Source: Comamonas testosteroni (GTDB lineage: Bacteria > Pseudomonadota > Gammaproteobacteria > Burkholderiales > Burkholderiaceae_C). Taken from it: a stretch of DNA of 64,000 nt. Each line of letters begins with the position of its first letter. Position 1 is the first letter of the stretch. Position numbers and translations under genes: made by a program. Below are positions 5,866 through 19,084 of the stretch, piece by piece. Where the stretch lies: the NCBI RefSeq assembly GCF_014076415.1, contig NZ_CP043568.1, positions 434,001 to 498,000 of the forward strand, given 5' to 3'. Below the pieces are notes generated by a model. That model searched no databases. It saw nothing but the letters and a program-made list of their open reading frames with translations, and had not been told where the DNA came from.

Positions 5866-5941
5866 GGCCCGGTAGCTCAGTCGGTAGAGCAGAGGATTGA
5901 AAATCCTTGTGTCGGCGGTTCGATTCCGTCCCAGGCCACCA
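5866..5941 (+). tRNA. tRNA-Phe(GAA), copy 1
   Basis: A 76-base cloverleaf with encoded CCA. The D arm is GCTC/GAGC, the anticodon stem GAGGA/TCCTT closes a TTGAAAA loop with anticodon GAA, and the T arm is GGCGG/CCGTC around TTCGATT. The acceptor stem GGCCCGG/CCAGGCC has one C5-A68 mismatch. It is identical base for base to the copy at 15176-15251. Confidence 0.96.
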
Positions 5942-5979: not shown

Positions 5980-6164
5980 CTGTTCGCGCCTGAGGAAAAG
6001 AATCCTTGGCTCCCGGTGCAATGCCAGGGACCTGGGGTGGTCTACACTGCTACACATTTTGTGGTGGCTTATGCTGCAGGTTTCGTGCAAGCTTTGAGCA
6101 CAGAGGCGGTGAGGGTGCTGACGTACCCCCGTTTTCAGTAGCATTGGGCTTTGGAGTCCGGGGA

Positions 6165-7015
6165 TTAATTCAACGGGTCTTGCATCAGCCTTTGAGCATA
6201 TGCCGCCGGGCTCAGTTCGTCGACGGCCTTCTTTGGCCGTTCCTCGTTGTATTCCCGGCGCCAAGCCTCGACGATCACGAGGGCATGTGCCAAGCTGGTG
6301 AACCAATGTTCGTTCAGGCATTCCTCTCTGAAGTGGCCGTTGAACGATTCGATGTAGGCGTTCTGGTTGGGCTTGCCAGGCTCAATGAGTAACAACTGAA
6401 CACCCCTGGCGTGGGCCCAGTTCAGCATGGCTCGACCGCAGAACTCCTTGCCGTAGTAAATGCATAGTAGTTGTCAGTTCGGATCGCTTTGGGCAGTCCC
6501 CTTGTGATGGCGAGTTGATCCACGACGCGCACCAACTGGTTGCCCCCCATTGCTCGCTCGGCCACGATGGCTACCGCCTCGTGGGTCGCGTCATCGACTA
6601 CCGTCAGGCTCTTGATGCTGCGTCCTTCGGCCGTGCGGTCAAAGACAAAGTCCATCGACCACACTTGATTGGCTGTCATCGGACGCTGTAGCGGGTGGCG
6701 ATCGGCCAGCGGGATCTTTTTGCGTTCGCGTTTCCTTACCTGCAAACCAGCCTCGGCGTACAGGCGGTTCACCCGTTTGTGGTTGACGATCTCGCCAGCT
6801 TGCCTGAGCTTGAGATAGATCATGCCGGCGCCGTAACGGCGATGGCGTGGCGCCAGAGCGATGATCTTGTCCTTCAAGGCACCGTTTCGGTCTTCAGCGG
6901 GCTTGTAGCGGTAGGCGCTGGCGCTCATGCCGATGACGAGCAGTGAGCGGCGTTCGCTGAGTCCACAGCTCATCATGTGGCGCACCGACTCGCGCCGTGC
7001 AGGTGCGCTCACCAC
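6165..7015 (-). pseudogene. IS3-family transposase OrfB (DDE integrase), frameshifted
   Basis: The upstream part (7015 down to about 6470) and downstream part (from about 6452 to 6165) are in different frames. Together they give a normal IS3 OrfB: HTH_21-like start, NQVWSMDFVFD with the first catalytic Asp, TRGLPKAIRTDN with the second Asp, then GKEFCGRAMLNWAHARG and the C-terminal IESFNGHFREECLNEHW with the catalytic Glu. A 17-base AT-rich insertion at about 6453-6469 lies directly after the codons for the second Asp and Asn, shifts the frame and makes the enzyme inactive. Removing those 17 bases restores one frame. Confidence 0.88.
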
Positions 7016-7278
7016 TTTTTTCTCAAGGCTTCTTTCGTCACCTCGTTCTCCAGCATGGACTCGGCCAGCAGCCGCTTGAGACGGGCGTTTTCAAGCTCTA
7101 GCTCCTTGAGCCGTTTCGCGTCCGAGACGGTCATGGCGCCGAACTTGTTACGCCAGAGGTAGTAGCTGGCCTCAGAGAAAACGTGCCGGCGGCACAGCTC
7201 TGCCACTGGCAGTCCAGATTCCGCTTCTCGCAGGAAGCCAAAGATCTGTTCTTCTGTAAATCTCTTTTTCACGTCCAA
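7009..7278 (-). CDS. IS3-family transposase OrfA (HTH protein)
   Basis: The 89-residue product has a helix-turn-helix (FTEEQIFGFLREAESGLPV, CRRHVFSEASYYLWRNKFG) and a leucine-rich C-terminal helix (LKELELENARLKRLLAES) used for oligomerisation. It ends in ALRKKW over the slippery run that would allow minus-one frameshifting into OrfB. It is intact, but without OrfB it can only act as a DNA-binding or inhibitory protein. Confidence 0.9.
   Translation of the reverse strand: MDVKKRFTEEQIFGFLREAESGLPVAELCRRHVFSEASYYLWRNKFGAMTVSDAKRLKELELENARLKRLLAESMLENEVTKEALRKKW
7015..7021 (-). other. A6G slippery site for OrfA-OrfB frameshifting
   Basis: Read on the minus strand, bases 7021 to 7015 are AAAAAAG at the end of orfA, inside the orfA/orfB overlap. 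This is the classic minus-one slippage heptamer that IS3-family elements use to make the OrfAB fusion transposase. Confidence 0.75.
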
Positions 7279-7457
7279 TCTCCTGTCTTCGGGATTGGAC
7301 TCCAGAGTCAGACGCTACTCAAATCCGGGAGGCGTCGGTCCAGTCTTGCCTTACCTGATGCGGTTCTGAGGATTCAAACGTCGGGCATCCGTGGCAAAGT
7401 TCATAAAAGCGCGACGATCACTTGGTGCGCCCGGAATTACAAGAAATACACTTCCCT

Positions 7458-9800
7458 TCAATGGGGAGATGCGGTGAGAGGCGTTTGTGACAAGCATCTG
7501 ATCGATGCTTGCACTGCAGCCTCGTCAATCACCAGCGGCGTACCCGGCGCCTGCGGGCCAGGTGTAATCACGACCTGCTCGACTTGGCCTGTGTAGGCGA
7601 AAACTCCCAACCCTGCGCACCGTGCACTCACTGGCATTCTTCTGCTCTGCCCGATGGATAGGCCCCCTGAAGGAATTCGCACCATAGTGGGTGAAAAATC
7701 TGTTTCTTGGCAGATAGGTTGCCCGTTAAGCTGTACTTGGCCGATACCCTGGCGATTGCCCTTGGCCGAGTAGCGGAGCTCAAAGTGTTGCACTCCCGGG
7801 TGTAGCGGTATTGGGGCAATTTCTGTGGGCTTGAACCACCACTGGTAGACGAAGTGAAGTTCCCCATTAAGGACGAAGAGGCTGATGCCGCAAAACGGAT
7901 CTCCAATGGAGAAAATTATCCCTTTGTCCCCAGCCTGCCAGTGGAAAGCTGTGCTCAGCAGGTAGTCGCGATCCGCAATCATGGGCGAGATGACCGTCGG
8001 AGGTATCCAGCGTGCGCTAGGCAGAAATTCCCGGCGCTGATTCAATGATGCCAGCTCGTGCGGAGGTACCGAAACTGCTCGGACATCATCCCGATTGTCC
8101 AGTGGGTAGACATAGTTTGCAGTGGCATCTGTTTCGAACTCCGCAGCGAGCCGCGACACCACATCGGGATGCTGCTGCGAAAGATCCTTGATCTCCGCCG
8201 GGTCGCTCTCGATGTCAAACAGCATCCACTGATCTAGGTTCATCTGCTGTCGAGGTGGCTGCAGCGAAACGATCTTCCAGCGACCGCTGATGTAGCCGCG
8301 GTTGGCCTGTAGTTCGTAGTACTGCCGCTGTCGCTTTTGCTCGACGCCTTCATTGTTCATCATGTCGGCGAAGCTGGTGCCATCCATGCCCCGCGTACGT
8401 AGGCCGTTGAAAGTCTCCGGGTAGGATGCGCCAGTAACGTCCAGCACCGTGGGCAGAAGATCGGTGACGTGTACCCACTGGTGGCGAATTTTTCCCTGGT
8501 GGTGCTTGATTTTCTTGGGCCAGTGCACAACCAGCGGTACCCGGATACCGCCCGCCATGGGGGTACGCTTGTAAAAGCGAAATGGCGTGTTGCTCACCTG
8601 AGTCCATCCGCTTGGATAGGCTCCATATGTGTCCGCGCTGCCCATGCGGCAGGAGTCGAGCAACTGCTTGACCACCTCTTGATCCTCGGGTAGACCCGCG
8701 CGTCGCCCCTGAAGATTGAGTACCCCTTCAGGACCACCAATGGAGTTGGCGCCGTTATCAGAGGTGACTATGACCAGCGTGTTGTCGAGTTGCCCGGAGG
8801 ATTCGAGAAGCCGTAGAACCTTGCCGATGTTCTGATCTGCGTTGTTCACGAGGGCTGCATATACCTCCATGTGGCGCGTAAAGTACTTTTTTTGCCCTGC
8901 ATCCAGCGTGTCCCACGGTGGGATGCCTGGATTGAGAGAGGCAAAACCAAAACGGTCATCAATCAGTCCAAGAGAGCGCTGGCGCTCGAAACGTGCGCGG
9001 CGCGCCTGCTCCCAGCCGTCGTCGTAGAGGCCTGCATTGCGGGCTAGGTCATCCGGCTTGGCTTGCAATGGCGTATGAGGGCTCTGTAGCGCGAGATAGA
9101 GAAAGAATGGTTTCCCGGGGGCGTTGGAATGGTGTTCACTCAGCCACGAAAGAGCACGGTCGGTGTAATCGTCCGGTGCAAAGTAGCCGGGAGCGAACGT
9201 GTCTGCGGAGGCGGGTTCATTGCCCTCCATCATTCGGTCAGGGTGGAAGTAGCTGGTCTCCGCCCCCAGAAATCCATAGAAGCGGTCGAAGCCTCGTTGC
9301 AGGGGCCAGGAACGTAGGTCGCCGCCGGGCCGGGCGTTGGCGTCATAGGTGTTGTGCCATTTGCCTGCGGCGTAGGTCGCGTATCCCTGTGCACGCAGCA
9401 GTTCTGCCATGGTTGGAGAGTCCTGGCTCATCTCCCCTTTGTAGCCAGGGTAGCCAGGATCATTGTGTGTCAACCATCCGCAGCCCACGCTGTGCGGATT
9501 CTTTCCGGTCAGCAAGGCTGCGCGTGCAGGGGTGCACATGGGAACCGTCGTGTAGCCGCTGAAGCGCAGTCCACCGGCTGCCAAGCGATCCACATGAGGA
9601 GTTGCTATCTCACCGCCAAAGCAGCCGAAGTCCGAATAACCCAAGTCGTCCAGCAGAATGACCAGAACATTGGGTACATCCTTTGCCGCCCGTTTGGGCG
9701 TCTGCCAATGGGGGGTCGAGTTTGCGAGTGTGTGTCCAATATGTCCCGCGAAGAATGATGCTGGGTCGCCTGCAAGCTCAGCGTCGAGGGTAGTCGCCAT
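7458..9800 (-). CDS. Arylsulfatase-type sulfatase, long form
   Basis: The product has 780 residues and hydrolyses sulfate esters. The metal-binding start of the family is seen in NVLVILLDDLGYSDFG (Asp51 and Asp52). The formylglycine site is Cys89 in CTPARAALLTG, fitting the C-x-P-x-R rule for oxidation by a formylglycine-generating enzyme, which is not in this window. GKWH and VTSDNGAN are further active-site motifs. A beta-rich C-terminal extension of about 200 residues makes it close in length to the roughly 780-residue mycobacterial AtsA/AtsD type. No signal peptide is obvious, so it is probably cytosolic. The frame is open 19 codons upstream, but ATG 9800 has GGAG at the right distance. 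A TGTC-N8-GACA palindrome lies 66 bases upstream. The substrate is unknown. Confidence 0.9.
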   Translation of the reverse strand: MATTLDAELAGDPASFFAGHIGHTLANSTPHWQTPKRAAKDVPNVLVILLDDLGYSDFGCFGGEIATPHVDRLAAGGLRFSGYTTVPMCTPARAALLTGKNPHSVGCGWLTHNDPGYPGYKGEMSQDSPTMAELLRAQGYATYAAGKWHNTYDANARPGGDLRSWPLQRGFDRFYGFLGAETSYFHPDRMMEGNEPASADTFAPGYFAPDDYTDRALSWLSEHHSNAPGKPFFLYLALQSPHTPLQAKPDDLARNAGLYDDGWEQARRARFERQRSLGLIDDRFGFASLNPGIPPWDTLDAGQKKYFTRHMEVYAALVNNADQNIGKVLRLLESSGQLDNTLVIVTSDNGANSIGGPEGVLNLQGRRAGLPEDQEVVKQLLDSCRMGSADTYGAYPSGWTQVSNTPFRFYKRTPMAGGIRVPLVVHWPKKIKHHQGKIRHQWVHVTDLLPTVLDVTGASYPETFNGLRTRGMDGTSFADMMNNEGVEQKRQRQYYELQANRGYISGRWKIVSLQPPRQQMNLDQWMLFDIESDPAEIKDLSQQHPDVVSRLAAEFETDATANYVYPLDNRDDVRAVSVPPHELASLNQRREFLPSARWIPPTVISPMIADRDYLLSTAFHWQAGDKGIIFSIGDPFCGISLFVLNGELHFVYQWWFKPTEIAPIPLHPGVQHFELRYSAKGNRQGIGQVQLNGQPICQETDFSPTMVRIPSGGLSIGQSRRMPVSARCAGLGVFAYTGQVEQVVITPGPQAPGTPLVIDEAAVQASIRCLSQTPLTASPH

Positions 9801-9866
9801 GCGTTTCTCCGTTCCAATTCCAGATGAATGATGGTGTCGACCATACGAGTCGTACACCTAGAAAAC

Positions 9867-9882
9867 TGTCAAGAATTCGACA
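9867..9882. promoter_or_regulatory. Operator-like palindrome before the sulfatase gene
   Basis: The sequence is TGTCAAGAATTCGACA, an inverted repeat TGTC-N8-GACA. It lies between the divergent sulfatase and porin genes. The same half sites and spacing recur at 9936-9951 and at 11848-11863, the last in front of a Crp/Fnr-type regulator gene, which is the likely binder. Confidence 0.65.
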
Positions 9883-9935
9883 TTGCAGCGCAGACCTCAG
9901 ATGGGCCAGCCATCCTAGCCCCATGGAGGCAGATT

Positions 9936-9951
9936 TGTCTGAAGTTTGACA
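9936..9951. promoter_or_regulatory. Operator-like palindrome before the porin relic
   Basis: The sequence is TGTCTGAAGTTTGACA, with the same TGTC-N8-GACA structure, 47 bases before the porin start codon. It is one of three copies in the island. Confidence 0.6.
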
Positions 9952-9998
9952 GTCCTCGATGGACCTCGTTCGTAGCATCCATCGCTCATGCAACAACC

Positions 9999-11104
9999 AT
10001 GGAGAGACAAACGCAATTTCGATGGAGTGTGCCCTTACTGATGCCGATGCTTGTGTTCCCTGTTGCAGCCGCAGTGGCCCAGACGACAAGCAGTTCATTG
10101 ACGCTCTATGGTCGGACCACTGCCGCGGTGGATTACAGAACGGATCAGGCGAGCGGTAAAGGTTCTGTGAATCTGGCCAACAGCACATTCTCTCCATCGA
10201 ACTTTGGTCTTCGAGGTGTGGAAGACTTGGGTGGTGGCATGCGCGCAATGTTCTGCCTGGAGAGTGGCATCGCCATCGACACCGGGGCACCAGTCAATGC
10301 TGCCAAGTTCTGGAATTGCGAATCCCCCGTGGGGCTGGCACTGAACAGTGTGGTTCTGCTCACGTTGGGGCGCCAACTTCACGCAGGGCCGGAGCGTGTC
10401 GCTCAATCCCTGGATGTCACAACGTATCCGGATCGGGCTTGGAGGTGACACCATTGGTTGCGTTTGGCGTAAACAAGTTTGCACAGAACGACGTTCGCGC
10501 AGATGACAGCATCAAATTGCGCCTCCAAGGTCCGAAGGGGCTAGGTTTGGGTTTGAGCGCTGCATTGAAAAACAGTTCGGGACGCAGTCAGCCCTTTGAT
10601 TTGGTCCAGGTCACGCCGCAGTGTACGGTGGTGGTCTGGGCGGTGAAATACAAAGGACCAGAGGCGGCTGGCAATGGCATGATTTCGGAACACATCGCTT
10701 ACGGTGTTGGTGGACATGTGCCGATCGGACCGAGGCGCGTGTACGCGCACTACGTCGTTGCTACCATGGATCCACTATAGGCGAGTCAGGTCGAATCCCG
10801 AAATCAGATTCCTCATCTTGGTGTTGCGTGGGCGGCGAGTCCCTGCGTTACGCTTAAGTTTGCGCTCTACCCTGACAGAGGAAAATCCTTGGACGGCGTG
10901 GAGGGCAGGGATGGGACTAAGAACTCCTATGTCTTGTCGGGTGACTATGCGATCTCGAAGCGCACGAGCTTGAATGTGGGTGTGTTCACTAATCAGTTCC
11001 AGAAGGGCTGCCGGCTGGAGCCCATCAACATCGCCGCGCTGTAAGGGGACTCCAGCGCGTCTTCTACCTTCGGCATCGGTATCGGAATTAGCCACCGTTT
11101 CTGA
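9999..11104 (+). pseudogene. Outer-membrane porin (general gram-negative type), degraded
   Basis: The start is clear: a signal peptide ending in PVAAAVAQ, then SSSLTLYGRTTAAVDYR and FGLRGVEDLGGGMRAMFCLESG, typical of trimeric Burkholderiales porins. The reading frame then shifts several times (near 10390, near 10620 and again further on), with pieces such as TPLVAFGVNKFAQ, VYGGGLGGEIQ and NSYVLSGDYAISKRTSLNVG in different frames. An in-frame TAA lies at 11041-11043. The last piece ends in GIGIGISHRF and TGA, the expected C-terminal Phe of an outer-membrane barrel. The whole length is therefore recognisable but cannot be translated. It was probably the uptake channel for the island's substrate. 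Confidence 0.85.
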
Positions 11105-11133
11105 GGACCACAAGGCCGGCGCTGCCTCGATGC

Positions 11134-11847
11134 TCATCCCTGGGCGATGGCTTTCAGTCCGGCCTTGTTCGTGATGCTCAGGGCTGCATAGGACAGGCTG
11201 ATGACGCCGGATGCTTCTAACTGCCGGAGGGCAAAATTGATGCGCTGCCGGCTCAGGCCCAGCCAGTCGGCAAGGTCAGACTGAGACAGTTTGACGTCGA
11301 GAAGGATACGGTCTCCGTCTTGTTTTCCGTGCAGGTCAGCCAGGATCTCCAGCATTGAGGCCACACGACTTTCAAGAGGCACGCCAGAGTCTATGGAGAG
11401 CCGCGCCATTGTCAGCCGGTAGCGGAAGGCGATCTGTTTTTCGAATGCCTGGACCAAGATGGGGTGACGTGTACGCAAGGCCTGCAAATCCTCAATCGCC
11501 CAGCCATAGACGAGCGATTCTCCCCGTGAGGAGAGGTCGTTGGAGTAGGTGCCCCCATCGATGACGCAAACAAGTCCGAAGAAGTCGCCGGGCAAGACCA
11601 AGCCCAGCAGATGCCGGTGTCCATTGCTACGCAGTGACACGCTCTCCAGCAAGCCATCGAGCAGCAACCAGGCGCGAGTGGGTTTGTCTCCTCGTCGACC
11701 CAGGTACTCGCCACGCTGAAGCTGGCGTGCGCGCCCCAAGGCCAGCATTTCTTCGATGAGGGCCTTCGAGCAATCCCGGAAACCAAGTGCCTGAGTCATA
11801 CAGGCGTGCGCTTGCTCAGTAACGTTATTGGTCGATTCGAGAGGCAT
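11134..11847 (-). CDS. Crp/Fnr-family transcriptional regulator
   Basis: The 237-residue product has a cyclic-nucleotide-binding-like beta barrel (QLQRGEYLGRRGDKPTRAW, GLVLPGDFFGLVCVIDGG) and a C-terminal winged helix with KLSQSDLADWLGLSRQRINFALRQLEASG, the DNA-reading helix of the Crp/Fnr class. There is no N-terminal cysteine cluster as in Fnr. The ligand is unknown. A GTG at 11874 would add nine residues, but it would put the TGTC-N8-GACA palindrome (11848-11863) inside the gene and lies within another palindrome, so I prefer ATG 11847. No good ribosome-binding site is seen for either. It is divergent from the decarboxylase/oxidoreductase operon and most likely regulates the island and itself. 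Confidence 0.85.
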   Translation of the reverse strand: MPLESTNNVTEQAHACMTQALGFRDCSKALIEEMLALGRARQLQRGEYLGRRGDKPTRAWLLLDGLLESVSLRSNGHRHLLGLVLPGDFFGLVCVIDGGTYSNDLSSRGESLVYGWAIEDLQALRTRHPILVQAFEKQIAFRYRLTMARLSIDSGVPLESRVASMLEILADLHGKQDGDRILLDVKLSQSDLADWLGLSRQRINFALRQLEASGVISLSYAALSITNKAGLKAIAQG

Positions 11848-11863
11848 TGTCGAATTTTTGACA
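11848..11863. promoter_or_regulatory. Operator-like palindrome before the Crp-type gene
   Basis: The sequence is TGTCGAATTTTTGACA, again TGTC-N8-GACA, directly before the chosen start codon of the regulator. Binding here would block expression of the regulator or of the divergent operon. Confidence 0.65.
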
Positions 11864-11869
11864 GTGGCG

Positions 11870-11879
11870 ATCACGTGAT
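11870..11879. promoter_or_regulatory. Perfect palindrome ATCACGTGAT
   Basis: A 10-base perfect palindrome in the 93-base region between the regulator and the divergent operon. It has no known match that I can name. Confidence 0.35.
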
Positions 11880-11910
11880 AGGCGAAGACTACAGCTGTTG
11901 ATTCTATGAC

Positions 11911-11927
11911 GGTGACACAGAGTCACC
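11911..11927. promoter_or_regulatory. Inverted repeat GGTGAC-N5-GTCACC
   Basis: A perfect 6-base inverted repeat with a 5-base spacer, ending 13 bases before the start codon of the first operon gene and just before its AGGAG ribosome-binding site. It could be an operator or a small hairpin limiting translation. Confidence 0.45.
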
Positions 11928-11940
11928 TAGCAGGAGATCT

Positions 11941-12492
11941 ATGACTGTTTCCACACACTTGATGCCGAATCCTCCGGGAGGGCCTAGTGCTTCTTCGATG
12001 CTTTCGGCATTGCAGAACGAAGGCGTGACGCATGCTGTCACCGTCCCGGATTTTGTGCAGTTTGCCCTTCATGAGCGGATTGCGGACCAAGCCTGCGGCA
12101 TCCGGAATGTTTTCGCAGCAACTGAGGATCAAGCGCTGACCACGGCTGCCGGCCTGTATCTGGGCGGGAGAACTCCCGTGGTCATGCTGCAGAACCAGGG
12201 CCTCTACAAGGGCTTCAACTCCCTTCGGGCCGTGTGTCTGGATGCGGGTATCCCCCTCGTGATTTTGGCCGGGCAGTTTGGCCGGGAGGTAGACAACTTT
12301 ACCAAGCCCATGACCCAGTCGCGTCGCAGCATGGTGAGGTTAATGCAACCTTTTCTGGATGCCATCGGATTTCGCTATTGGACGATTGAAGAGGATTCGG
12401 ACGTCGCCGCGATCGCACAAGCCTATACACACGCGCGCCAAGCTCAGACCGCTGCTGTGGTTTTGGTCGGACGCCACATCACTTGGAACTGA
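11941..12492 (+). CDS. Thiamine-diphosphate decarboxylase, N-terminal (alpha) subunit, ComD-like
   Basis: The 183-residue product is the pyrimidine-binding half of a thiamine-diphosphate enzyme, encoded as a separate chain. ATEDQALTTAAGLYLGG includes the conserved Glu that activates the cofactor, and PVVMLQNQGLYKGFNSLRA resembles sulfopyruvate decarboxylase ComD and phosphonopyruvate decarboxylase. The start ATG 11941 has AGGAG eight bases before it. The beta subunit gene follows after 17 bases. The pair should decarboxylate a 2-oxoacid to an aldehyde; the true substrate is not shown by the sequence. It is the first gene of a three-gene operon with the GMC oxidoreductase. Confidence 0.82.
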   Translation: MTVSTHLMPNPPGGPSASSMLSALQNEGVTHAVTVPDFVQFALHERIADQACGIRNVFAATEDQALTTAAGLYLGGRTPVVMLQNQGLYKGFNSLRAVCLDAGIPLVILAGQFGREVDNFTKPMTQSRRSMVRLMQPFLDAIGFRYWTIEEDSDVAAIAQAYTHARQAQTAAVVLVGRHITWN

Positions 12493-12509
12493 CGCGGAGT
12501 CGACGCCTT

Positions 12510-13133
12510 ATGAATAACCATCTTCCGACGCTGGCCCTTGGTAGCGTCATGGCCGAATTGATCCAGGCAAGGGCTGTTCTTGAGCCGAACGCGGTGCTGG
12601 TCGCCACCATGTCTTCGATGCTGGTACTTGATGAGCTGGGCGAGACGCATCGCCGGATCGACTCCGTTCCGCTGATGGGCGGGGCCGCAGGACTGGGGCT
12701 TGGCATCGCTTTGAGCCGGCCTGACGTGCCTGTGGTCGTGCTCGACGGCGATGCGAGCCTCTTGATGGAGCTTGGCAGCCTGGCCACGGTAGCCCGCAAT
12801 CAGCCTAACCGTTACCTGCATGTCGTCATCAACAACCAAGTGCAGTTCAATGGCATAACTAATCTCCCGGTCGTGGCGACAGAGCCGAGTGTGGATTTCA
12901 CCGCAATGGCACTCGCCGCCGGGTACCAGAGTGCGGAGCGAATTGACAGCTTTGCTGCATGGAAGGATGCGCTTCCCCGGCTGCTTTCGGCGAAGGGAGC
13001 AAGCTTTGTTGAATTGTGCGTTCGCCCTGATGCACGTCGAGTCGGGGCGCAGCAGCCGCAGCCAATTCTTCCTGATATTCAGTTTGTACGCATGCGCATG
13101 GCAGCACGCAAGCTGATGGTGGAGCTGGCATGA
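12510..13133 (+). CDS. Thiamine-diphosphate decarboxylase, C-terminal (beta) subunit, ComE-like
   Basis: The 207-residue product is the diphosphate-binding half of the same enzyme. VVVLDGDASLLMELGSL followed by VVINNQVQ is the metal and diphosphate motif GD-G/A-x(n)-N. PLMGGAAGLGLGIALS is also typical. ATG 12510 is chosen because it has GGAG upstream; an in-frame TTG at 12483 would overlap the alpha gene. The stop overlaps the GMC gene as ATGA, so the three genes are probably translated together. It is similar in layout to ComE of sulfopyruvate decarboxylase, but the family also includes other 2-oxoacid decarboxylases. Confidence 0.82.
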   Translation: MNNHLPTLALGSVMAELIQARAVLEPNAVLVATMSSMLVLDELGETHRRIDSVPLMGGAAGLGLGIALSRPDVPVVVLDGDASLLMELGSLATVARNQPNRYLHVVINNQVQFNGITNLPVVATEPSVDFTAMALAAGYQSAERIDSFAAWKDALPRLLSAKGASFVELCVRPDARRVGAQQPQPILPDIQFVRMRMAARKLMVELA

Positions 13134-14746
13134 ACCGCGACACATTCGACTACATTGTTGTGGGGGCAGGGTCTGCAGGCGCTGCAGCTGCGGCTCGGCT
13201 TTCCGAGAACCCTGACCTGAGGGTGCTCCTTCTCGATGCTGGTCCACCCGATGGCAATATATGGAGCAAGATTCCGCTAGGCGTCGGTACGGTGCTGGGT
13301 AGAGGTATCTACCTGCGCAACTTTCACACAGAGCCCGATCCGCAGCTCAATGGGCGTCAGATCTACTGGCCGCGCGGCTGGGTTCTTGGCGGATCGTCGA
13401 CAGTCAACGGGATGATCTGGGTGCACGGGACGCCGCATCTGTATGACGAATGGGCGGCAGACGGTTGTCCTGGTTGGGCCTATGCAGACCTCCTGCCGTG
13501 GTTTCGGCGCATCGAAAGTTTTGGCCGAGGTGATGACAGATTCCGCGGGCATGAAGGTCCCGTGACGATCACGGAGTTCTCTCCGGTGGATCCTCTGGCC
13601 AACGCCTTTCTGGATGCTCTCGAGGCTTCTGGCGTCGGACGCCGTGTCGCAGACTACAACGCGGGCGGATTCGGCGGCAGTCATTTGCAGTTCAATACCC
13701 GGAGAGGCGTGCGCTGCAATACGCGCATGGCATACCTGGACCCAGCCCAATCGCGCGCGAATCTGCAAGTGCTTCCAAACACCTTGGTCACACGTTTGCT
13801 CTTGCAAGAAAAGAGGGCGGTCGGAGTTCAGGCACTCCATGAGGGTAGGGAAGTCAAGCTCTACGCAAAGCATGAGGTTATCCTTTGCGGTGGCACCTTC
13901 AATTCGACACAGCTGCTTGAACTGTCAGGCATAGGCCGACGCGAGGTGCTGGAAGCTGTGGGAGTGCCGGTAGTGCTGGAGTTGCCGATGGTGGGTGAGA
14001 ACCTGTCGGAGCATGTCTATAGTCCCATGGTCTATCGCACCCAAAAAGGGGTGAGCTGGAATAGGCCGCTGAACAGCGTCCTCGGCAAGGCTAGGTGGGG
14101 GGCACGCTGGTTGCTCAGGCGTGATGGGCCGCTGTCCACCAACTCAATCACTGCGCAGGCCTTTGTGGCCGAAGATGGACAGGGCACGAATGCCGATCTG
14201 AAGCTGCAGGTCCAGCAAGTGAGCTCATCGAATAACCGCGCCAAAGGTGCGATGGTCCTGGATGATTTTGAGGGAGTAACCTTGGCCTCCTTTCAAATTC
14301 GTCCGCATTCGCGTGGTACTTGCCATATCGCCAGCAGAGACCCTCAAGGGGATCCTCGTTTGGTTGCCAACCACTTTACTGATGCGCGTGACATCGACGC
14401 TTGCTTGAATGCGCTCAGGCTCTCGCGCCGGATGGCAGCCGCTGCTCCGCTGTCTCATTGGATTGAGGAGGAGCTTCGTCCAGGCCCGAACGGCGCCAGC
14501 GACGAAGCGTTACTGGCCTATCTGCGTGCCACGGGAGCGACCGCCTATCACCCGGTGGGGACTTGTCGAATCGGCTCGGATGCAGCGCAGTCCGTCGTGG
14601 ATCCACAATTGCGTGTACACGGGATGAGTGGCCTGCGCGTGGCTGATGGATCCGTCATGCCCACTATTGCATCGACCAACACCAACGCGATATGCACGGT
14701 CATAGGCGAGCGTGTCGCGGAGTTCATTCGGCAGCAGCGTATGTAG
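13130..14746 (+). CDS. GMC-family FAD-dependent alcohol oxidoreductase
   Basis: The 538-residue flavoenzyme has the Rossmann motif DYIVVGAGSAGAAAAARL at the N-terminus. The GMC signature PRGWVLGGSSTVNGM lies near residue 80, HSRGTCHIASRDPQGDP in the middle, and the C-terminal catalytic region has YHPVGTCRIG and TIASTNTNA. Length and motifs fit choline dehydrogenase or other alcohol dehydrogenases of the GMC class. Enzymes of this type oxidise a primary or secondary alcohol to the aldehyde or ketone, passing electrons to the respiratory chain or oxygen. Here it probably handles the alcohol released by the sulfatase or an aldehyde product of the decarboxylase; this is inference. Confidence 0.88.
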   Translation: MNRDTFDYIVVGAGSAGAAAAARLSENPDLRVLLLDAGPPDGNIWSKIPLGVGTVLGRGIYLRNFHTEPDPQLNGRQIYWPRGWVLGGSSTVNGMIWVHGTPHLYDEWAADGCPGWAYADLLPWFRRIESFGRGDDRFRGHEGPVTITEFSPVDPLANAFLDALEASGVGRRVADYNAGGFGGSHLQFNTRRGVRCNTRMAYLDPAQSRANLQVLPNTLVTRLLLQEKRAVGVQALHEGREVKLYAKHEVILCGGTFNSTQLLELSGIGRREVLEAVGVPVVLELPMVGENLSEHVYSPMVYRTQKGVSWNRPLNSVLGKARWGARWLLRRDGPLSTNSITAQAFVAEDGQGTNADLKLQVQQVSSSNNRAKGAMVLDDFEGVTLASFQIRPHSRGTCHIASRDPQGDPRLVANHFTDARDIDACLNALRLSRRMAAAAPLSHWIEEELRPGPNGASDEALLAYLRATGATAYHPVGTCRIGSDAAQSVVDPQLRVHGMSGLRVADGSVMPTIASTNTNAICTVIGERVAEFIRQQRM

Positions 14747-14758
14747 TGCGCTTAGAAC

Positions 14759-14771
14759 CACATGAAGCCCT
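14759..14771 (+). repeat. 13-base copy of the tRNA-Phe 3' flank
   Basis: CACATGAAGCCCT at 14759-14771 is identical to 5942-5954, which follows the CCA end of tRNA-Phe copy 1. It lies 12 bases after the GMC stop codon. It could mark an old recombination end of the island. Confidence 0.5.
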
Positions 14772-14785
14772 CTCAGGATCACGCC

Positions 14786-14964
14786 ATGAACCACCCCCGG
14801 CTCAAACAATACCCATCTAACATCCCTGCCCATGTCGATGTGAGGTCTTTCCCGTCGCTGGTCGCATTGCTGGAGCAAGCCTTGAACAGCATGCTGCGCG
14901 TGCCGCTATAACCAGCTTGGGTAAGACAGCGTCGTTCGCGGAACTGGACCTGATGTGTCATTGA
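14786..14964 (+). pseudogene. Fragment of a fadD-like long-chain acyl-CoA synthetase
   Basis: Bases 14786-14911 read LKQYPSNIPAHVDVRSF and then PSLVALLEQAL, which matches the start of FadD (compare the YP..VP and SLV..E pattern of E. coli FadD). After a frameshift, 14914-14964 read SLGKTASFAELDLMCH, like the next FadD segment with MGK and the LTF-ELD pattern. Nothing of the remaining 500 residues is present, so this is a 5' scrap. Confidence 0.6.
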
Positions 14965-14977
14965 ATCCCTGGAGGCT

Positions 14978-15085
14978 TTGATAGGTGGTCATATTGATTT
15001 TGCGGCTGCGCTACTCGGACCTTTGGCTTTGCATATACGTCCTGGAAAAATGCGCGCCCTGGCAGTATTCGCAGGTCGGCGAATG
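14978..15085 (+). pseudogene. Fragment of a Bug/TctC-type substrate-binding protein
   Basis: The frame reads GGHIDFAAALLGPLALHIR and PGKMRALAVFAGRR, matching the central segment of tripartite tricarboxylate receptors (GGHID...I-AGKLRALAV). The rest of the gene is missing. Together with the fadD scrap it suggests repeated recombination between the island and the second tRNA-Phe. Confidence 0.55.
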
Positions 15086-15175: not shown

Positions 15176-15251
15176 GGCCCGGTAGCTCAGTCGGTAGAGC
15201 AGAGGATTGAAAATCCTTGTGTCGGCGGTTCGATTCCGTCCCAGGCCACCA
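15176..15251 (+). tRNA. tRNA-Phe(GAA), copy 2
   Basis: It is identical over all 76 bases to copy 1, including the C5-A68 acceptor mismatch and the encoded CCA. With its own promoter and terminator it is a full gene, not just a 3' end duplication. Confidence 0.96.
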
Positions 15252-15496: not shown

Positions 15497-18400
15497 GTGA
15501 CAGCAGAGCAGCAACCAAGGGCGTCGCAACCGGCAGCTAACTGGCAGCCGGGCCTGATCGCCATTCACGGCAACCAGACCGAGGCGCTGGCCGATACCGT
15601 GCTGGCCTGGCTGGCCGCGCACCCCTTGCAGGCGCTGGAGCCCGAGATCGTGCTGGTGCAAAGCAACGGCATGGCCGAGTGGTTCAAGATGCGCATGGCC
15701 GGGCAGCAGGGCGTGTGCGCCGCCGCACAGGTCGAGTTGCCGGCGCGCTTTGTCTGGCGCAGCTACCGGCAGATTCTGGGCAGGCATGAGGTGCCACGTG
15801 AATCGCCGCTGGACAAGACGCCCATGATCTGGCGCCTGATGCGTCTGCTGCCGCAATGTCTGGGCGAGTCTGCATTCGCACCGATCGCCAACTTTCTGCG
15901 CCCTGGCGAGCCGCAGCGCCTGCTGCAGCTGGCAGAAAAGCTGGCGGACCTGTTTGACCAGTACCAGATCTACCGCGCCGACTGGCTGGCCGCCTGGGAG
16001 CAGGGCGAGGATGTGCTGCGCACGGCGGGACGCCCCGATGCGCCCGTGCCCGAAGGGCAGCTCTGGCAACCCCAGCTGTGGCGCAAGGTGCTGGCCGAGC
16101 TCGATGAGCAGGAGCGTGCCGCCACCCGCCCGGCCCTGCTGGCGCGGATTCTGGACGCGCTGCAGAGCGGCCGGCCGCCGGTCACGCCGCTGGCGCGCCG
16201 CGTGGTGGTGTTCGGCATGAGCCAGATGCCTCTGTCGCTGATGCAGTTTCTGAGCGGCATTGCCCAGCACAGCCAGGTGCTGATTGCCGTTCCCAACCCC
16301 TGCCGCTTTCACTGGGCCGATGCCATCGACGGGCGCGAGCTGCTGCGCCAGCAGCGCCGCCGCCACGCCGACAAGGGCGGCAAGGACCTGGCGCAGATTC
16401 CCTTGGCCGCCATGCACGCCCATGCCCATCCGCTGCTGGCGGCCTGGGGACGGCAAAGCCGTGACTACGTGCGTCAGCTCGATGCCTTCGACACCACGGA
16501 TGACACCGCCATGCAATGGGGCTGGCCGCGTGTGGATGTGTATGACGAGGCCGAGGCGGGCGAGCTGATCGACGCACCGCTGCTGGCCCAGGTGCAGCAG
16601 CGCATTCGCGATCTGGTACCCATGTCTGAGCACCCTGCCGTCGAGATCGCGGCGGCCGACCAGTCCATCGTCTTTCGCAAGGCCCATGGCCTGGTGCGCG
16701 AGCTCGAAGTGCTGCACGATCAACTGCTGCAATGGCTGGCCGAGCCTGCCGCTGCGGGCCGCGCAGCGCTGGCGCCGCGCGAGGTGGTGGTCATGCTGCC
16801 GTCGATTGAAGAAGCTGCACCCGCCATCCGCGCCGTGTTCGGTCAGTACGGCCGCCACGATGCGCGCCATATCCCGTTTGACATTGCCGACGTGGGCGCG
16901 CGCGCCAGCAGCCCGCTGGTGACCGCGCTGCAATGGCTGCTCAAGCTGCCTCAGCAGCGCTGCCGCCTGAGCGAGTTGTGCGATCTGCTCGATGTCCCCT
17001 CCGTGGCGGCGCGGGTGGGGCTGGCGGCCGACGATCTGCCCCAGCTCACGCACTGGATGGCCGGCGCAGGCATTCGCTGGGGGCTCAACCATGCGCAGCG
17101 CGCCCAGTTGGGCCTGGCGGCCTGTGGTGATCCCAACAGCGCCTGGTTCGGCCTGCGCCGCATGCTGCTGGGCTATGCCAGCGGGCCGGCGCTGCAGGCC
17201 CCCTTCGACGATGCACAGGCTTTTGCCGGCATGGAGCCCTATGACGAAGTGGGCGGCCTGACGGCCGAGCTGGCCGGATCGCTGGCCAGCTTGCTGGGGC
17301 GCATGCTGCAGTGGTGGCAAACGGCTGCAACGGCCGTGGCTCCCGAGGTCTGGGCCCAGCGTTTTCGCAGTCTGATGGATGACTTCTTTGTCGCGCAGGG
17401 CGATGAGGACCAGGCCTTGTGCGCCGCACTCGACACGGCCCTGGTCGGCTGGCAGTCCGCCTGCGAGCAAGCGGGCTTCGATGCCCTGATTCCGCTGGAA
17501 GTGGCGCAGGAGGCCTGGCTGCAGGCCCTGTCCGAGCCCGCGCTCAACCAGCGCTTTCGCGCCGGCGGCGTGACTTTTTGCACGCTGATGCCCATGCGCG
17601 CCATTCCCTTCGATGTGGTGTGCCTGCTGGGCATGAACGATGGCGACTACCCGCGCCGCGCCATGCGCGTGGACTTCGATCTGATGGCCTTGCCCGGCCA
17701 GCAGCGCCCCGGCGACCGCGCGCGCCGCGACGATGACCGCCAGCTGATGCTGGATGCCTTGCTGTCGGCCCGCAGCAAGCTCTACATCAGCTGGGCCGGC
17801 CGCCATGTGCGCGACAACAGCGAACAGCCCCCCTCGGTGCTGGTCTCGCAGCTGCGTGACTATCTGCGCCAAGGCTGGCAGGGCGAAGGCAGCGCAGGCC
17901 TTTGCGCCAGCGAGCGCGGAGATCTGCTGCTGGCCCAGCGCACCCGCCAGCATCCTTTGCAGCCTTTCAGCCGCCGCTATTTTGAACAGGCTTCGGGGCT
18001 GTCGACTTTCGCGCGCGAATGGTATGGCGCGCATGAAGAGCGGGAGGCGCAGTCGCTGCCTGTCGTGGCCGCATTCGAACCTGACCCCGAAGTACCGCTG
18101 ACGCTGGCACGCCTGACGGAATTTCTGCGCCATCCTGCACGCAGCTTTCTGCGCAACCGCCTGCAGGTACGCTTCGAGCAGGACGAGGAACTGCTGGAGG
18201 ACGACGAGCTTTTCAGCGTCGATGGTCTGACCGCCTACGGCCTGATTCAGCAACTGCAGCAAGGCGTGCGCACGCAGCTGGCGCATGATGCGGCGCTGGA
18301 CGTGGGTCTGCAGGTGCAGCGCCAGGTGCAGCGTCTGGGGCGTGCCGGCGTGCTGCCGCTGGCGGGTCTCGGCAGGCGCGAGGCCGAGGCCTTGCAGGTC

Positions 18401-19084
18401 CAGGCCACGCCGTCGCTGCTGGCCTGGCAGCAGCAGATGCGGTTATGGCCCCATGCGGCGCCGCGCGAGCGGCTGTTGCTGCACTGCGATGCGGTCACGT
18501 TGGATGACTGGGTGGATGGCTTGCAGGAGCGCGAAGAGCCGTCCTCGGATGCGGGCCACAGCCGTTGCTGGTTTGCGCTGGAGCCGCGCACGCTGCTGAA
18601 CAAAAAAGGCGAGCTGCAGGCCTACAAGCTGCTGCCCATCTATGTGCGCAGTCTGGCGCTCTCCAGCACGGGCACCGACACGCTGATGGGCGTGATCGCA
18701 CGCGACACCCTGGTCTGGGTGCAACCGCTGGAGCCGCAGGCGGCCACGCAGCGCTTGCAAGCCTTGATGCAGCTGTGGCTGGCGGGCCAGAACGAGCCCT
18801 TGCCGTTGCCTCTCAAAAGCGCCATCGCAGCCGGCCTGGACGATCTGAGCGCCGCAGCACAGGCCTATGAGGGCGGCTACATGCTGGGCGGCGAATGCGA
18901 AGACCCCAGCTGGGCGCGCTGCTACCCCGGCTGGGAGGCGCTGACGGCCGATCTGCGCTTTCACGCCCTGGCCAAGCAGGTCTATGGCCCGCTGCATGAC
19001 TGGCTGGCCGCGCAGGTGCACACCGAGAGCCTGCCCCTGATACAGCGTGCAGACCAGAACGAACAACCAGGAGAGCTGGCATGA
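15497..19084 (+). CDS. recC: Exodeoxyribonuclease V subunit gamma (RecC)
   Basis: The 1195-residue product is the scaffold of RecBCD, which processes double-strand ends and recognises Chi in E. coli. It starts with LIAIHGNQTEALADTVLAWL and LVQSNGMAEWFKMRMA, the typical RecC opening, and has MPMRAIPFDVVCLLGMNDGDYPR and the HVRDNSEQPPSVLVSQL segment. The start is GTG 15497. It is somewhat longer than E. coli RecC (1122). The last four bases overlap recB as ATGA, so subunits are made in a coupled way. A long antisense open frame over this gene is a GC-content shadow. Confidence 0.95.
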   Translation: MTAEQQPRASQPAANWQPGLIAIHGNQTEALADTVLAWLAAHPLQALEPEIVLVQSNGMAEWFKMRMAGQQGVCAAAQVELPARFVWRSYRQILGRHEVPRESPLDKTPMIWRLMRLLPQCLGESAFAPIANFLRPGEPQRLLQLAEKLADLFDQYQIYRADWLAAWEQGEDVLRTAGRPDAPVPEGQLWQPQLWRKVLAELDEQERAATRPALLARILDALQSGRPPVTPLARRVVVFGMSQMPLSLMQFLSGIAQHSQVLIAVPNPCRFHWADAIDGRELLRQQRRRHADKGGKDLAQIPLAAMHAHAHPLLAAWGRQSRDYVRQLDAFDTTDDTAMQWGWPRVDVYDEAEAGELIDAPLLAQVQQRIRDLVPMSEHPAVEIAAADQSIVFRKAHGLVRELEVLHDQLLQWLAEPAAAGRAALAPREVVVMLPSIEEAAPAIRAVFGQYGRHDARHIPFDIADVGARASSPLVTALQWLLKLPQQRCRLSELCDLLDVPSVAARVGLAADDLPQLTHWMAGAGIRWGLNHAQRAQLGLAACGDPNSAWFGLRRMLLGYASGPALQAPFDDAQAFAGMEPYDEVGGLTAELAGSLASLLGRMLQWWQTAATAVAPEVWAQRFRSLMDDFFVAQGDEDQALCAALDTALVGWQSACEQAGFDALIPLEVAQEAWLQALSEPALNQRFRAGGVTFCTLMPMRAIPFDVVCLLGMNDGDYPRRAMRVDFDLMALPGQQRPGDRARRDDDRQLMLDALLSARSKLYISWAGRHVRDNSEQPPSVLVSQLRDYLRQGWQGEGSAGLCASERGDLLLAQRTRQHPLQPFSRRYFEQASGLSTFAREWYGAHEEREAQSLPVVAAFEPDPEVPLTLARLTEFLRHPARSFLRNRLQVRFEQDEELLEDDELFSVDGLTAYGLIQQLQQGVRTQLAHDAALDVGLQVQRQVQRLGRAGVLPLAGLGRREAEALQVQATPSLLAWQQQMRLWPHAAPRERLLLHCDAVTLDDWVDGLQEREEPSSDAGHSRCWFALEPRTLLNKKGELQAYKLLPIYVRSLALSSTGTDTLMGVIARDTLVWVQPLEPQAATQRLQALMQLWLAGQNEPLPLPLKSAIAAGLDDLSAAAQAYEGGYMLGGECEDPSWARCYPGWEALTADLRFHALAKQVYGPLHDWLAAQVHTESLPLIQRADQNEQPGELA

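What the first reader, a model, noticed from the sequence alone, without database searches (positions are those of the whole stretch)
7458..14746. Possible undescribed catabolic system: sulfatase, porin, Crp-type regulator, split ThDP decarboxylase and GMC oxidoreductase
Seen: a long-form sulfatase (Cys89 in CTPAR), a porin relic, a Crp/Fnr-type gene, and a coupled three-gene operon of ComD-like and ComE-like subunits plus a GMC oxidoreductase, all together and nothing else intact. Known: ComDE-type enzymes decarboxylate sulfopyruvate; GMC enzymes oxidise alcohols; sulfatases release alcohols from sulfate esters; choline-sulfatase/choline dehydrogenase is a known pairing but has no such decarboxylase. 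Inference: the set may degrade a sulfated hydroxy compound, releasing the alcohol, oxidising it, and decarboxylating a 2-oxoacid. I know of no pathway with exactly this set.
Basis: partly seen in the sequence, partly recalled or inferred. Interest (0 to 1): 0.78.

Follow-up and report, generated by a model that had tools for sequence, protein, structure and literature searches.

The report
Sulfate-ester catabolic island, decarboxylase-like enzyme
A block of genes inserted into a Comamonas chromosome carries a sulfate-cutting enzyme and a vitamin-B1-dependent enzyme plus an alcohol oxidase under what looks like one shared DNA switch, and related sets recur in other bacteria, pointing to an undescribed way of eating sulfated organic compounds.

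Summary
The genes are as described. They form a ~9.1-kb, GC-poor insertion between two native tandem tRNA-Phe genes. The split ThDP pair (D, E) and the GMC gene are a conserved unit: GMC lies within 4.5 kb of E in 50 of 57 loci. Sulfatase association is real but partial: S1-family genes lie within 9 kb in 16 of 57. A palindrome TGTC-N8-GACA with Crp-like geometry occurs three times in the 64-kb window: two copies before the sulfatase, one in the crp/D promoter. It precedes D exactly in 14 of 22 loci with divergent crp, against 7 of 739 control genes. So sulfatase and ThDP/GMC genes are probably one regulon. The ThDP pair meets neither the sulfopyruvate nor the phosphonopyruvate decarboxylase cut-offs, though its nearest solved relatives are decarboxylases. 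A same-genome paralogous locus has an aldehyde dehydrogenase and no ThDP pair. Best reading: sulfate ester to alcohol (sulfatase), to carbonyl (GMC), then a ThDP step, probably 2-oxoacid decarboxylation. Substrate and chemistry are unproven. The nearest described system found is the alkyl-sulfate slf operon; no paper listed in my searches showed this exact set.

The parts
5866..5941 (+). tRNA-Phe (left flank, native)
   Evidence: ARAGORN; upstream gene plus tRNA matched, at least in part, in 52 of 53 genus genomes
5985..15060 (.). inserted island, approximate ends
   Evidence: homology to relatives stops at 5981-5993 and resumes at 15061-15071 in L138, L140 and L141 (15123 in L143)
6165..7278 (-). 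broken IS3-family transposase (three frame pieces)
   Evidence: Pfam/NCBIfam of the pieces
7458..9800 (-). S1-family (type I) sulfatase, 780 aa, Cys89 in CTPAR
   Evidence: PF00884 5e-66; motif
9867..9882 (.). operator-like palindrome TGTC-N8-GACA, upstream of the sulfatase
9936..9951 (.). second palindrome TGTC-N8-GACA, upstream of the sulfatase
9880..10780 (+). porin relic (frame-broken), approximate ends
   Evidence: Porin_4 1.2e-12 over part of ORF 9828-10448; nothing in ORF 10316-10780
11134..11874 (-). Crp/Fnr-type regulator (an ATG at 11847 is a likely alternative start)
   Evidence: PF00027, PF13545; recognition helix with SRQ
11848..11863 (.). operator-like palindrome between crp and D
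11941..12492 (+). D: ThDP enzyme PYR-domain subunit (ComD-like fold)
   Evidence: PF02776; AlphaFold pLDDT 89, nearest folds AzcB/C and RhiEF
12510..13133 (+). E: ThDP enzyme PP-domain subunit with DGDASLLM motif (ComE-like fold); listed from TTG 12483
   Evidence: PF02775; pLDDT 83, nearest fold RhiEF
13130..14746 (+). GMC oxidoreductase, choline-dehydrogenase-like, HPVGT at residue 474
   Evidence: PF00732/PF05199; below BetA cut-offs; motif
15176..15251 (+). tRNA-Phe (right flank, native tandem copy)
   Evidence: ARAGORN; 15 of 29 fetched relatives carry the pair 170-254 bp apart

Best explanation
A horizontally acquired organosulfate-catabolism module under one Crp-type regulator. Supported by sequence: one island, one probable operator in front of both transcription units, and a conserved D-E-GMC core that repeatedly pairs with sulfatases. 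Inferred: the sulfatase hydrolyses a sulfate ester of a hydroxylated compound; the GMC flavoenzyme oxidises the freed hydroxyl to a carbonyl; the two-subunit ThDP enzyme then acts on that carbonyl compound, most likely decarboxylating a 2-oxoacid to an aldehyde one carbon shorter. Aldehyde dehydrogenase (encoded at a paralogous locus of this genome) and CoA ligases (beside the core in other genomes) would finish the route.
For: GMC within 4.5 kb of E in 50 of 57 loci. S1-family genes near 16 of 57, where this genome's 6 genes would predict about 0.9. Sulfatase-type gene in 10 of 12 loci with the window's GMC subtype vs 8 of 38 with the other (Fisher 1.9e-4; with one locus per 90% E cluster 5 of 5 vs 8 of 34, 0.002; per 80% cluster 3 of 3 vs 6 of 26, 0.023). 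In 397 family genomes a sulfatase of at least 49% identity occurs in 3, all among the 9 with a close E (hypergeometric 8e-6, or 3.6e-4 without the own genome). TGTC-N8-GACA: all 3 window copies lie in the island; D promoters with divergent crp: 14 of 22 exact and 21 of 22 within one mismatch, 8 and 14 of 15 by 80% cluster, vs 7 and 47 of 739 control genes. Exact copies also precede the sulfatases of L038, L078 (own genome) and L129. Paralog L078 pairs sulfatase and GMC with an aldehyde dehydrogenase. L038 holds S1 genes, two D-E pairs, GMC, ALDH and a FadD-type ligase together. The nearest solved split ThDP enzymes are the decarboxylases RhiEF and AzcB/C.
Against: 37 of 57 D-E loci show neither an S1 nor an SdsA-like gene within 9 kb, some on short contigs. 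The GMC-subtype link rests on few independent lineages (3 of 3 at 80% clustering). Four other genomes of the order-level draw carry a 50-59% identical sulfatase without a close E. In G395 sulfatase and D-E lie on different contigs and its D promoter lacks the site. Nothing recognised in the island makes a 2-oxoacid, except possibly the GMC enzyme. The SWRG segment of phosphonopyruvate decarboxylase is replaced by GQFGRE. The operator pattern alone is unspecific: 33 copies in the genome vs 26 for the reversed control; 4 of 100 shuffles of the window reach three copies.
Confidence: 0.5

Rival explanations
1. Same module, but the ThDP enzyme takes the GMC-made aldehyde directly and expels a leaving group from the alpha carbon, as sulfoacetaldehyde acetyltransferase does with sulfite (recalled). 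For an alkoxyacetaldehyde from an alkyl ether sulfate or ethoxylate this would cleave the ether into an alcohol plus an acetyl unit.
For: An ALDH stands with sulfatase and GMC in the paralog L078 and in the slf operon, neither of which has the ThDP pair in what I saw. Long-chain CoA-ligase-like genes flank close relatives L009 and L038, and an acetate-CoA-ligase-like gene follows GMC in L010 (450.9 bits, cut-off 729). Central ether fission of alcohol ethoxylates is described as unknown in detail (PMC7299911, Introduction read).
Against: The nearest solved split relatives are decarboxylases. The chemistry is by analogy. Two other ether-cleaving enzymes for PEG carboxylates are already known. 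Glycolate-oxidase and malate-synthase genes near four D-E loci point to C2 acids other than acetate.
Confidence: 0.17
2. The sulfatase is a sulfur-scavenging or unrelated gene that hitch-hiked in the same island; D-E-GMC is a separate carbon pathway.
For: Sulfatase homologues occur without a close E and 37 of 57 D-E loci show no sulfatase-type gene nearby.
Against: Shared palindrome in front of both, enrichment, and same-strand order D-E-GMC-sulfatase in Limnohabitans, Cupriavidus basilensis and Comamonadaceae loci.
Confidence: 0.15
3. The ThDP pair is a genuine sulfopyruvate or phosphonopyruvate decarboxylase and the locus degrades a sulfonate or phosphonate.
For: The best curated matches are those families; the phosphonopyruvate decarboxylase RhiEF is the top fold match of E and among the top of D.
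Against: Scores 58.3/147.95, 71.5/221.5 and 54.4 or 97/312.5 against cut-offs; motif replaced; no phosphonate or sulfonate gene recognised in the island.
Confidence: 0.04

Closest known systems
slf (slfRCHSL) alkyl-sulfate operon of Psychrobacter plasmid pP62BP1
   Same: Sulfatase plus GMC alcohol oxidoreductase in one regulated unit; SDS decomposition shown experimentally (PMC3346939 and PMC10779009, passages read).
   Different: Sulfatase is MBL-fold type III, not S1; an aldehyde dehydrogenase instead of a ThDP pair; ligase present; AraC-type, not Crp-type, regulator.
ComDE sulfopyruvate / RhiEF phosphonopyruvate decarboxylases, AzcB/C imino-acid decarboxylase
   Same: Split PYR and PP subunits; same fold as RhiEF and AzcB/C.
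   Different: 20-27% identity to the two solved ones; curated cut-offs failed; GQFGRE in place of SWRG; coupled to a GMC gene.
Choline sulfatase / choline dehydrogenase (betC/betA)
   Same: S1 sulfatase with a GMC dehydrogenase (recalled).
   Different: Both window proteins far below the cut-offs (107.8/433.45; 398.3/732.1); no ThDP pair there (recalled).
PEG/ethoxylate degradation (PegA, PegC, PCDH)
   Same: Alcohol dehydrogenase PegA as first oxidation (PMC7299911, passages and Introduction read; that PegA is GMC is recalled).
   Different: Uses an ALDH and a carboxylate dehydrogenase; no sulfatase or ThDP pair in the parts read.

Membership tests
S1 (type I) sulfatase | PF00884 domain and C-x-P-x-R formylglycine motif | tested here: met
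   CTPAR at Cys89
Sulfopyruvate decarboxylase (ComDE) | curated NCBIfam cut-offs TIGR03845 / TIGR03846 | tested here: not met
   58.3 of 147.95 and 71.5 of 221.5
Phosphonopyruvate decarboxylase | TIGR03297 cut-off | tested here: not met
   54.4 and 97 of 312.5 for the two subunits scored apart; the model is of a one-chain enzyme, so the halves cannot reach it easily
Phosphonopyruvate decarboxylase | SWRG segment as in RhiE and in L108 (L108 taken as this enzyme from its neighbours, by eye) | tested here: not met
   GQFGRE instead
ThDP enzyme | GD(G/A)...N cofactor motif, catalytic Glu, fold | tested here: met
   D88-G89-D90-A91 and N118 invariant in 14 E, E62 invariant in 12 D; folds; activity not tested
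Choline dehydrogenase BetA | TIGR01810 / PRK02106 cut-offs | tested here: not met
   398.3 of 732.1; 474.2 of 605
Choline sulfatase | TIGR03417 cut-off | tested here: not met
   107.8 of 433.45
slf-type alkyl-sulfate operon | sulfatase + GMC + ALDH + CoA ligase together | tested here: not met
   no ALDH or ligase recognised in the island; ALDH at paralog locus L078
Crp/Fnr regulator | cNMP-binding and Crp-type HTH domains | tested here: met
Crp/Fnr regulator | binds a palindromic operator | tested here: inconclusive
   candidate TGTC-N8-GACA conserved; binding not testable here
Integrase-type tRNA island | integrase and att duplication of the tRNA end | tested here: not met
   no integrase recognised; the second tRNA is a native tandem copy in close relatives
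Organosulfate catabolic pathway | growth or turnover on a sulfate ester | not testable with these tools
   needs assays

The most novel reading that the evidence does not exclude
The D-E pair is a new ThDP enzyme that cleaves the ether of alkoxyacetaldehydes made by GMC from (de-sulfated) glycol ethers: a hitherto unknown ether-cleaving step in the breakdown of alkyl ether sulfates and alcohol ethoxylates.
Probability: 0.12. Interest if true: 0.88.

Novelty: new variant of a known kind. Interest (0 to 1): 0.6.

Why it matters
The E family is large and uncharacterised: 1274 proteins at E <= 1e-10 among 7999 scored candidates (this may include relatives outside the GMC-linked clade), and the names shown in the best 120 are generic ('thiamine pyrophosphate-dependent enzyme', 'phosphonopyruvate decarboxylase', 'hypothetical protein' and the like). 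The palindrome gives a direct handle to find the inducer and hence the substrate. If the sulfate-ester reading holds, it adds a ThDP step to organosulfate breakdown in Burkholderiales; if the aldehyde-cleaving variant holds, it would be a new way to open ether surfactants.

Tried and rejected
Rejected: tRNA-integrase island, because the two tRNA-Phe genes are a tandem pair in close relatives. Rejected: genuine sulfopyruvate or phosphonopyruvate decarboxylase. Weakened: 'three unrelated sulfatase classes serve the module'. SdsA-like genes sit near E in 5 of 57 loci, where about 0.05 would be expected from 42 genes over the cut-off in 150 genomes (mean genome size taken as 4.6 Mb; one search used 44). 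But the six proteins read from three of these loci (L009, L035, L065) lack the HxHxDH metal motif, the L039 piece aligned badly and the weak L063 hit was not examined, so they are not shown to be sulfatases. TauD-like genes (4 of 57) may be any 2-oxoglutarate dioxygenase. Enolase-type sugar-acid dehydratases near three sulfatases (L079 below its cut-off; L130 and L132 only by eye) did not recur in D-E loci. Literature searches gave no described equivalent (searches returned zero papers). By E tree the window groups with L009, L010, L011, L012 and L038, but its GMC is 71% identical to L009's and 64-68% to the Limnohabitans type and only 41-43% to those of L010-L012, so GMC genes seem exchanged between D-E lineages; I built no GMC tree. 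A first count used 58 loci and 23 promoters; on checking, L080 proved to be the same contig as L057 (equal contig length), so repeats it without L080 (57 and 22) and with E clusters. Other rows dropped there: duplicate contigs listed in the scripts (same species or same locus fetched twice) and loci whose best E piece was under 100 bits, among them L061, which has an S1 gene after GMC. Gene starts in fetched loci come from my own codon-score caller.
Full report
1. What is there. The window is G000:C1:434001-498000. A relative in the same genus (G046, contig 89 of 259131 bases) has the contig length of Comamonas testosteroni JL40 NZ_AWOR01000089, so the organism is most likely a Comamonas. The finding region holds an S1 sulfatase, a porin relic, a Crp-type gene, the two ThDP subunits D and E, and a GMC oxidoreductase. 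D and E are 17 bp apart if E starts at its ATG, and the GMC start overlaps the E stop.

2. How it got there. Two tRNA-Phe genes flank it. They are not a duplication made by insertion. Of 29 relatives' loci fetched, 15 show both copies, with starts 170-254 bp apart; 13 show one copy within the mismatch limit used; one contig ends before. In the window the starts are 9310 bp apart. Homology to relatives stops at 5981-5993; it resumes at 15061-15071 in L138, L140 and L141 and at 15123 in L143. GC is 57.6% for the insert (its parts 56.0-59.1%) and 62.5% and 63.6% for the flanks. No integrase was recognised, only a broken IS3 transposase at the left. E was found at 1e-20 in 2 of 53 genomes of the genus.

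3. The conserved core. A scan of genome contigs with E gave 67 loci; a few came from the genome search. After dropping duplicates that I recognised and weak pieces, 57 loci were scored: GMC within 4.5 kb of E in 50; S1-family gene within 9 kb in 16, of which 10 at 45% identity or more to the window's sulfatase; SdsA-like in 5; TauD-like in 4; S1 or SdsA-like in 20. The window's own S1 density (6 genes in 5.95 Mb) predicts about 0.9 loci. GMC falls into two subtypes: at least 60% identical to the window's (A, 12 loci) and 36-60% (B, 38 loci). Sulfatase-type genes are near 10 of 12 A loci (the two misses, L051 and L056, are contigs that end in or just after GMC) and 8 of 38 B loci. With one locus per 90% E cluster this is 5 of 5 against 8 of 34 (Fisher 0.002), per 80% cluster 3 of 3 against 6 of 26 (0.023). 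In Limnohabitans, Rhodoferax (short piece), C. basilensis and Comamonadaceae loci the sulfatase directly follows GMC on the same strand.

4. Genome-level co-occurrence. Of 397 genomes of the family, 12 have an E match at 1e-25 and 9 at 1e-60; 3 have a sulfatase of at least 49% identity, and all 3 are among the 9. Against this, 4 other genomes of an order-level draw (5 of 399 matched, own genome included) carry such a sulfatase with only distant ThDP relatives (1e-23 to 1e-32). In G395 the sulfatase and D-E lie on different contigs.

5. One regulon. The repeat finder flagged a 22-nt inverted repeat between the sulfatase upstream region and the crp start. It is a palindrome, TGTC-N8-GACA, equal to TGTCN-N6-NGACA, the geometry of the Crp site TGTGA-N6-TCACA with one base changed (Crp site recalled). 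The 64-kb window has exactly three copies, all here; 4 of 100 shuffles reach three anywhere. Upstream of D with a divergent crp it is exact in 14 of 22 and within one mismatch in 21 of 22 loci; by 80% E cluster 8 and 14 of 15, L061 being counted apart. In the first run (23 promoters, L080 included) other spacings gave 0-1 exact, control genes of the same loci 7 and 47 of 739, and shuffles of all 60 D regions a mean of 0.23 exact, at most 2. Where a sulfatase seems by gene order to start its own transcript, the copy is exact for the window, L038, L078 and L129, one mismatch for L053 and two for L060; four more (L049, L052, L055, L058) are cut off by the locus end. Sulfatases L131-L134, from genomes without a close E, show 2, 2, 2 and 3 mismatches; 3 of 5 against 0 of 4 is not significant alone. 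In the 13 distinct loci where the pattern for the Crp recognition helix could be read it carries SRQ or TRQ. E. coli Crp has SRET there, and its Glu181 reads the base that differs here (recalled). In the whole genome the extended pattern occurs 33 times against 26 for the reversed control, so only the clustering and its conservation carry weight.

6. The ThDP step. D and E fold as PYR and PP domains (pLDDT 89 and 83). The nearest solved structures are AzcB/C (imino-acid decarboxylase) and RhiEF (phosphonopyruvate decarboxylase), 20-27% identical. Neither subunit meets the curated cut-offs. The SWRG segment is GQFGRE; five of its six positions are invariant and the Q is at 90% or more in 12 D sequences. 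In the own-genome paralogous locus L078, sulfatase (49%), a second sulfatase (35%) and GMC (42%) accompany a betaine-aldehyde-dehydrogenase-like ALDH and an MFS transporter, and E has a single copy in the genome, in the island. L038 has both kinds together: an S1 sulfatase, FadD-type ligase, D and E; then a second sulfatase, GMC, E, D, crp and an ALDH 77% identical to that of L078. A sister ThDP clade (L105-L107) is paired with ALDH. So D-E plausibly handles or makes an aldehyde-level intermediate. Family precedent favours 2-oxoacid decarboxylation; an alpha-elimination on an aldehyde is the bolder alternative.

7. Known comparisons. The slf operon (PMC3346939, PMC10779009, passages read) degrades SDS with sulfatase, GMC (named so in the first paper), ALDH and ligase, and is the nearest described system found. 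On alkyl ether sulfates and ethoxylates I saw passages of PMC5486822, PMC5445686 and PMC7299911, and the Introduction of the last. It names two ether-cleaving enzymes for PEG carboxylates and says that details of central ether fission of alcohol ethoxylates are not known. My nine topical searches listed no paper recognisable by title or abstract start as describing D-E-GMC with a sulfatase; a tenth asked only for two strain names. The library lacks most subscription journals.

8. Verdict. A real, co-inherited and probably co-regulated catabolic module.

Noticed in passing
L078:7949-19646 (G000:C1:1411948-1423645): Paralogous sulfatase cluster in the same genome: MFS, ALDH, GMC, a Crp-like gene (27% identical), two S1 sulfatases and a Bug-type binding protein (by similarity), with an exact TGTC-N8-GACA before the first sulfatase.
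   Followed up: partly
L009:5896-9358; L035:5220-9065; L065:6031-7785 and 18161-19870: SdsA-like alkylsulfatase homologues near D-E-GMC lack the HxHxDH metal motif and carry HxHY instead; possibly an uncharacterised subfamily.
   Followed up: partly
L021, L029, L030, L099: Glycolate oxidase and/or malate synthase G genes near D-E-GMC loci without a sulfatase within 9 kb (4 loci), hinting at a C2 acid product.
   Followed up: partly
L024, L029, L030, L033, L037, L045, L046, L099, L104: Aconitase X genes recur with D-E-GMC, mostly in one subclade and in some with an ABC transporter.
   Followed up: no
L105, L106, L107: A sister split ThDP family is coupled to ALDH without GMC; glutamine-synthetase-like genes nearby in L105 and L106 by eye.
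   Followed up: no
L189:4554-6144 (G000:C1:5224553-5226143): Another TGTC-N8-GACA site in the genome lies between a short Crp-like reading frame and a porin-like gene (both by eye).
   Followed up: no
37224-37345: Rfam match to Burkholderia sRNA Bcj11 (83.1 bits).
   Followed up: no
6165-7278: IS3-family transposase broken into three frames at the left end of the insert.
   Followed up: partly
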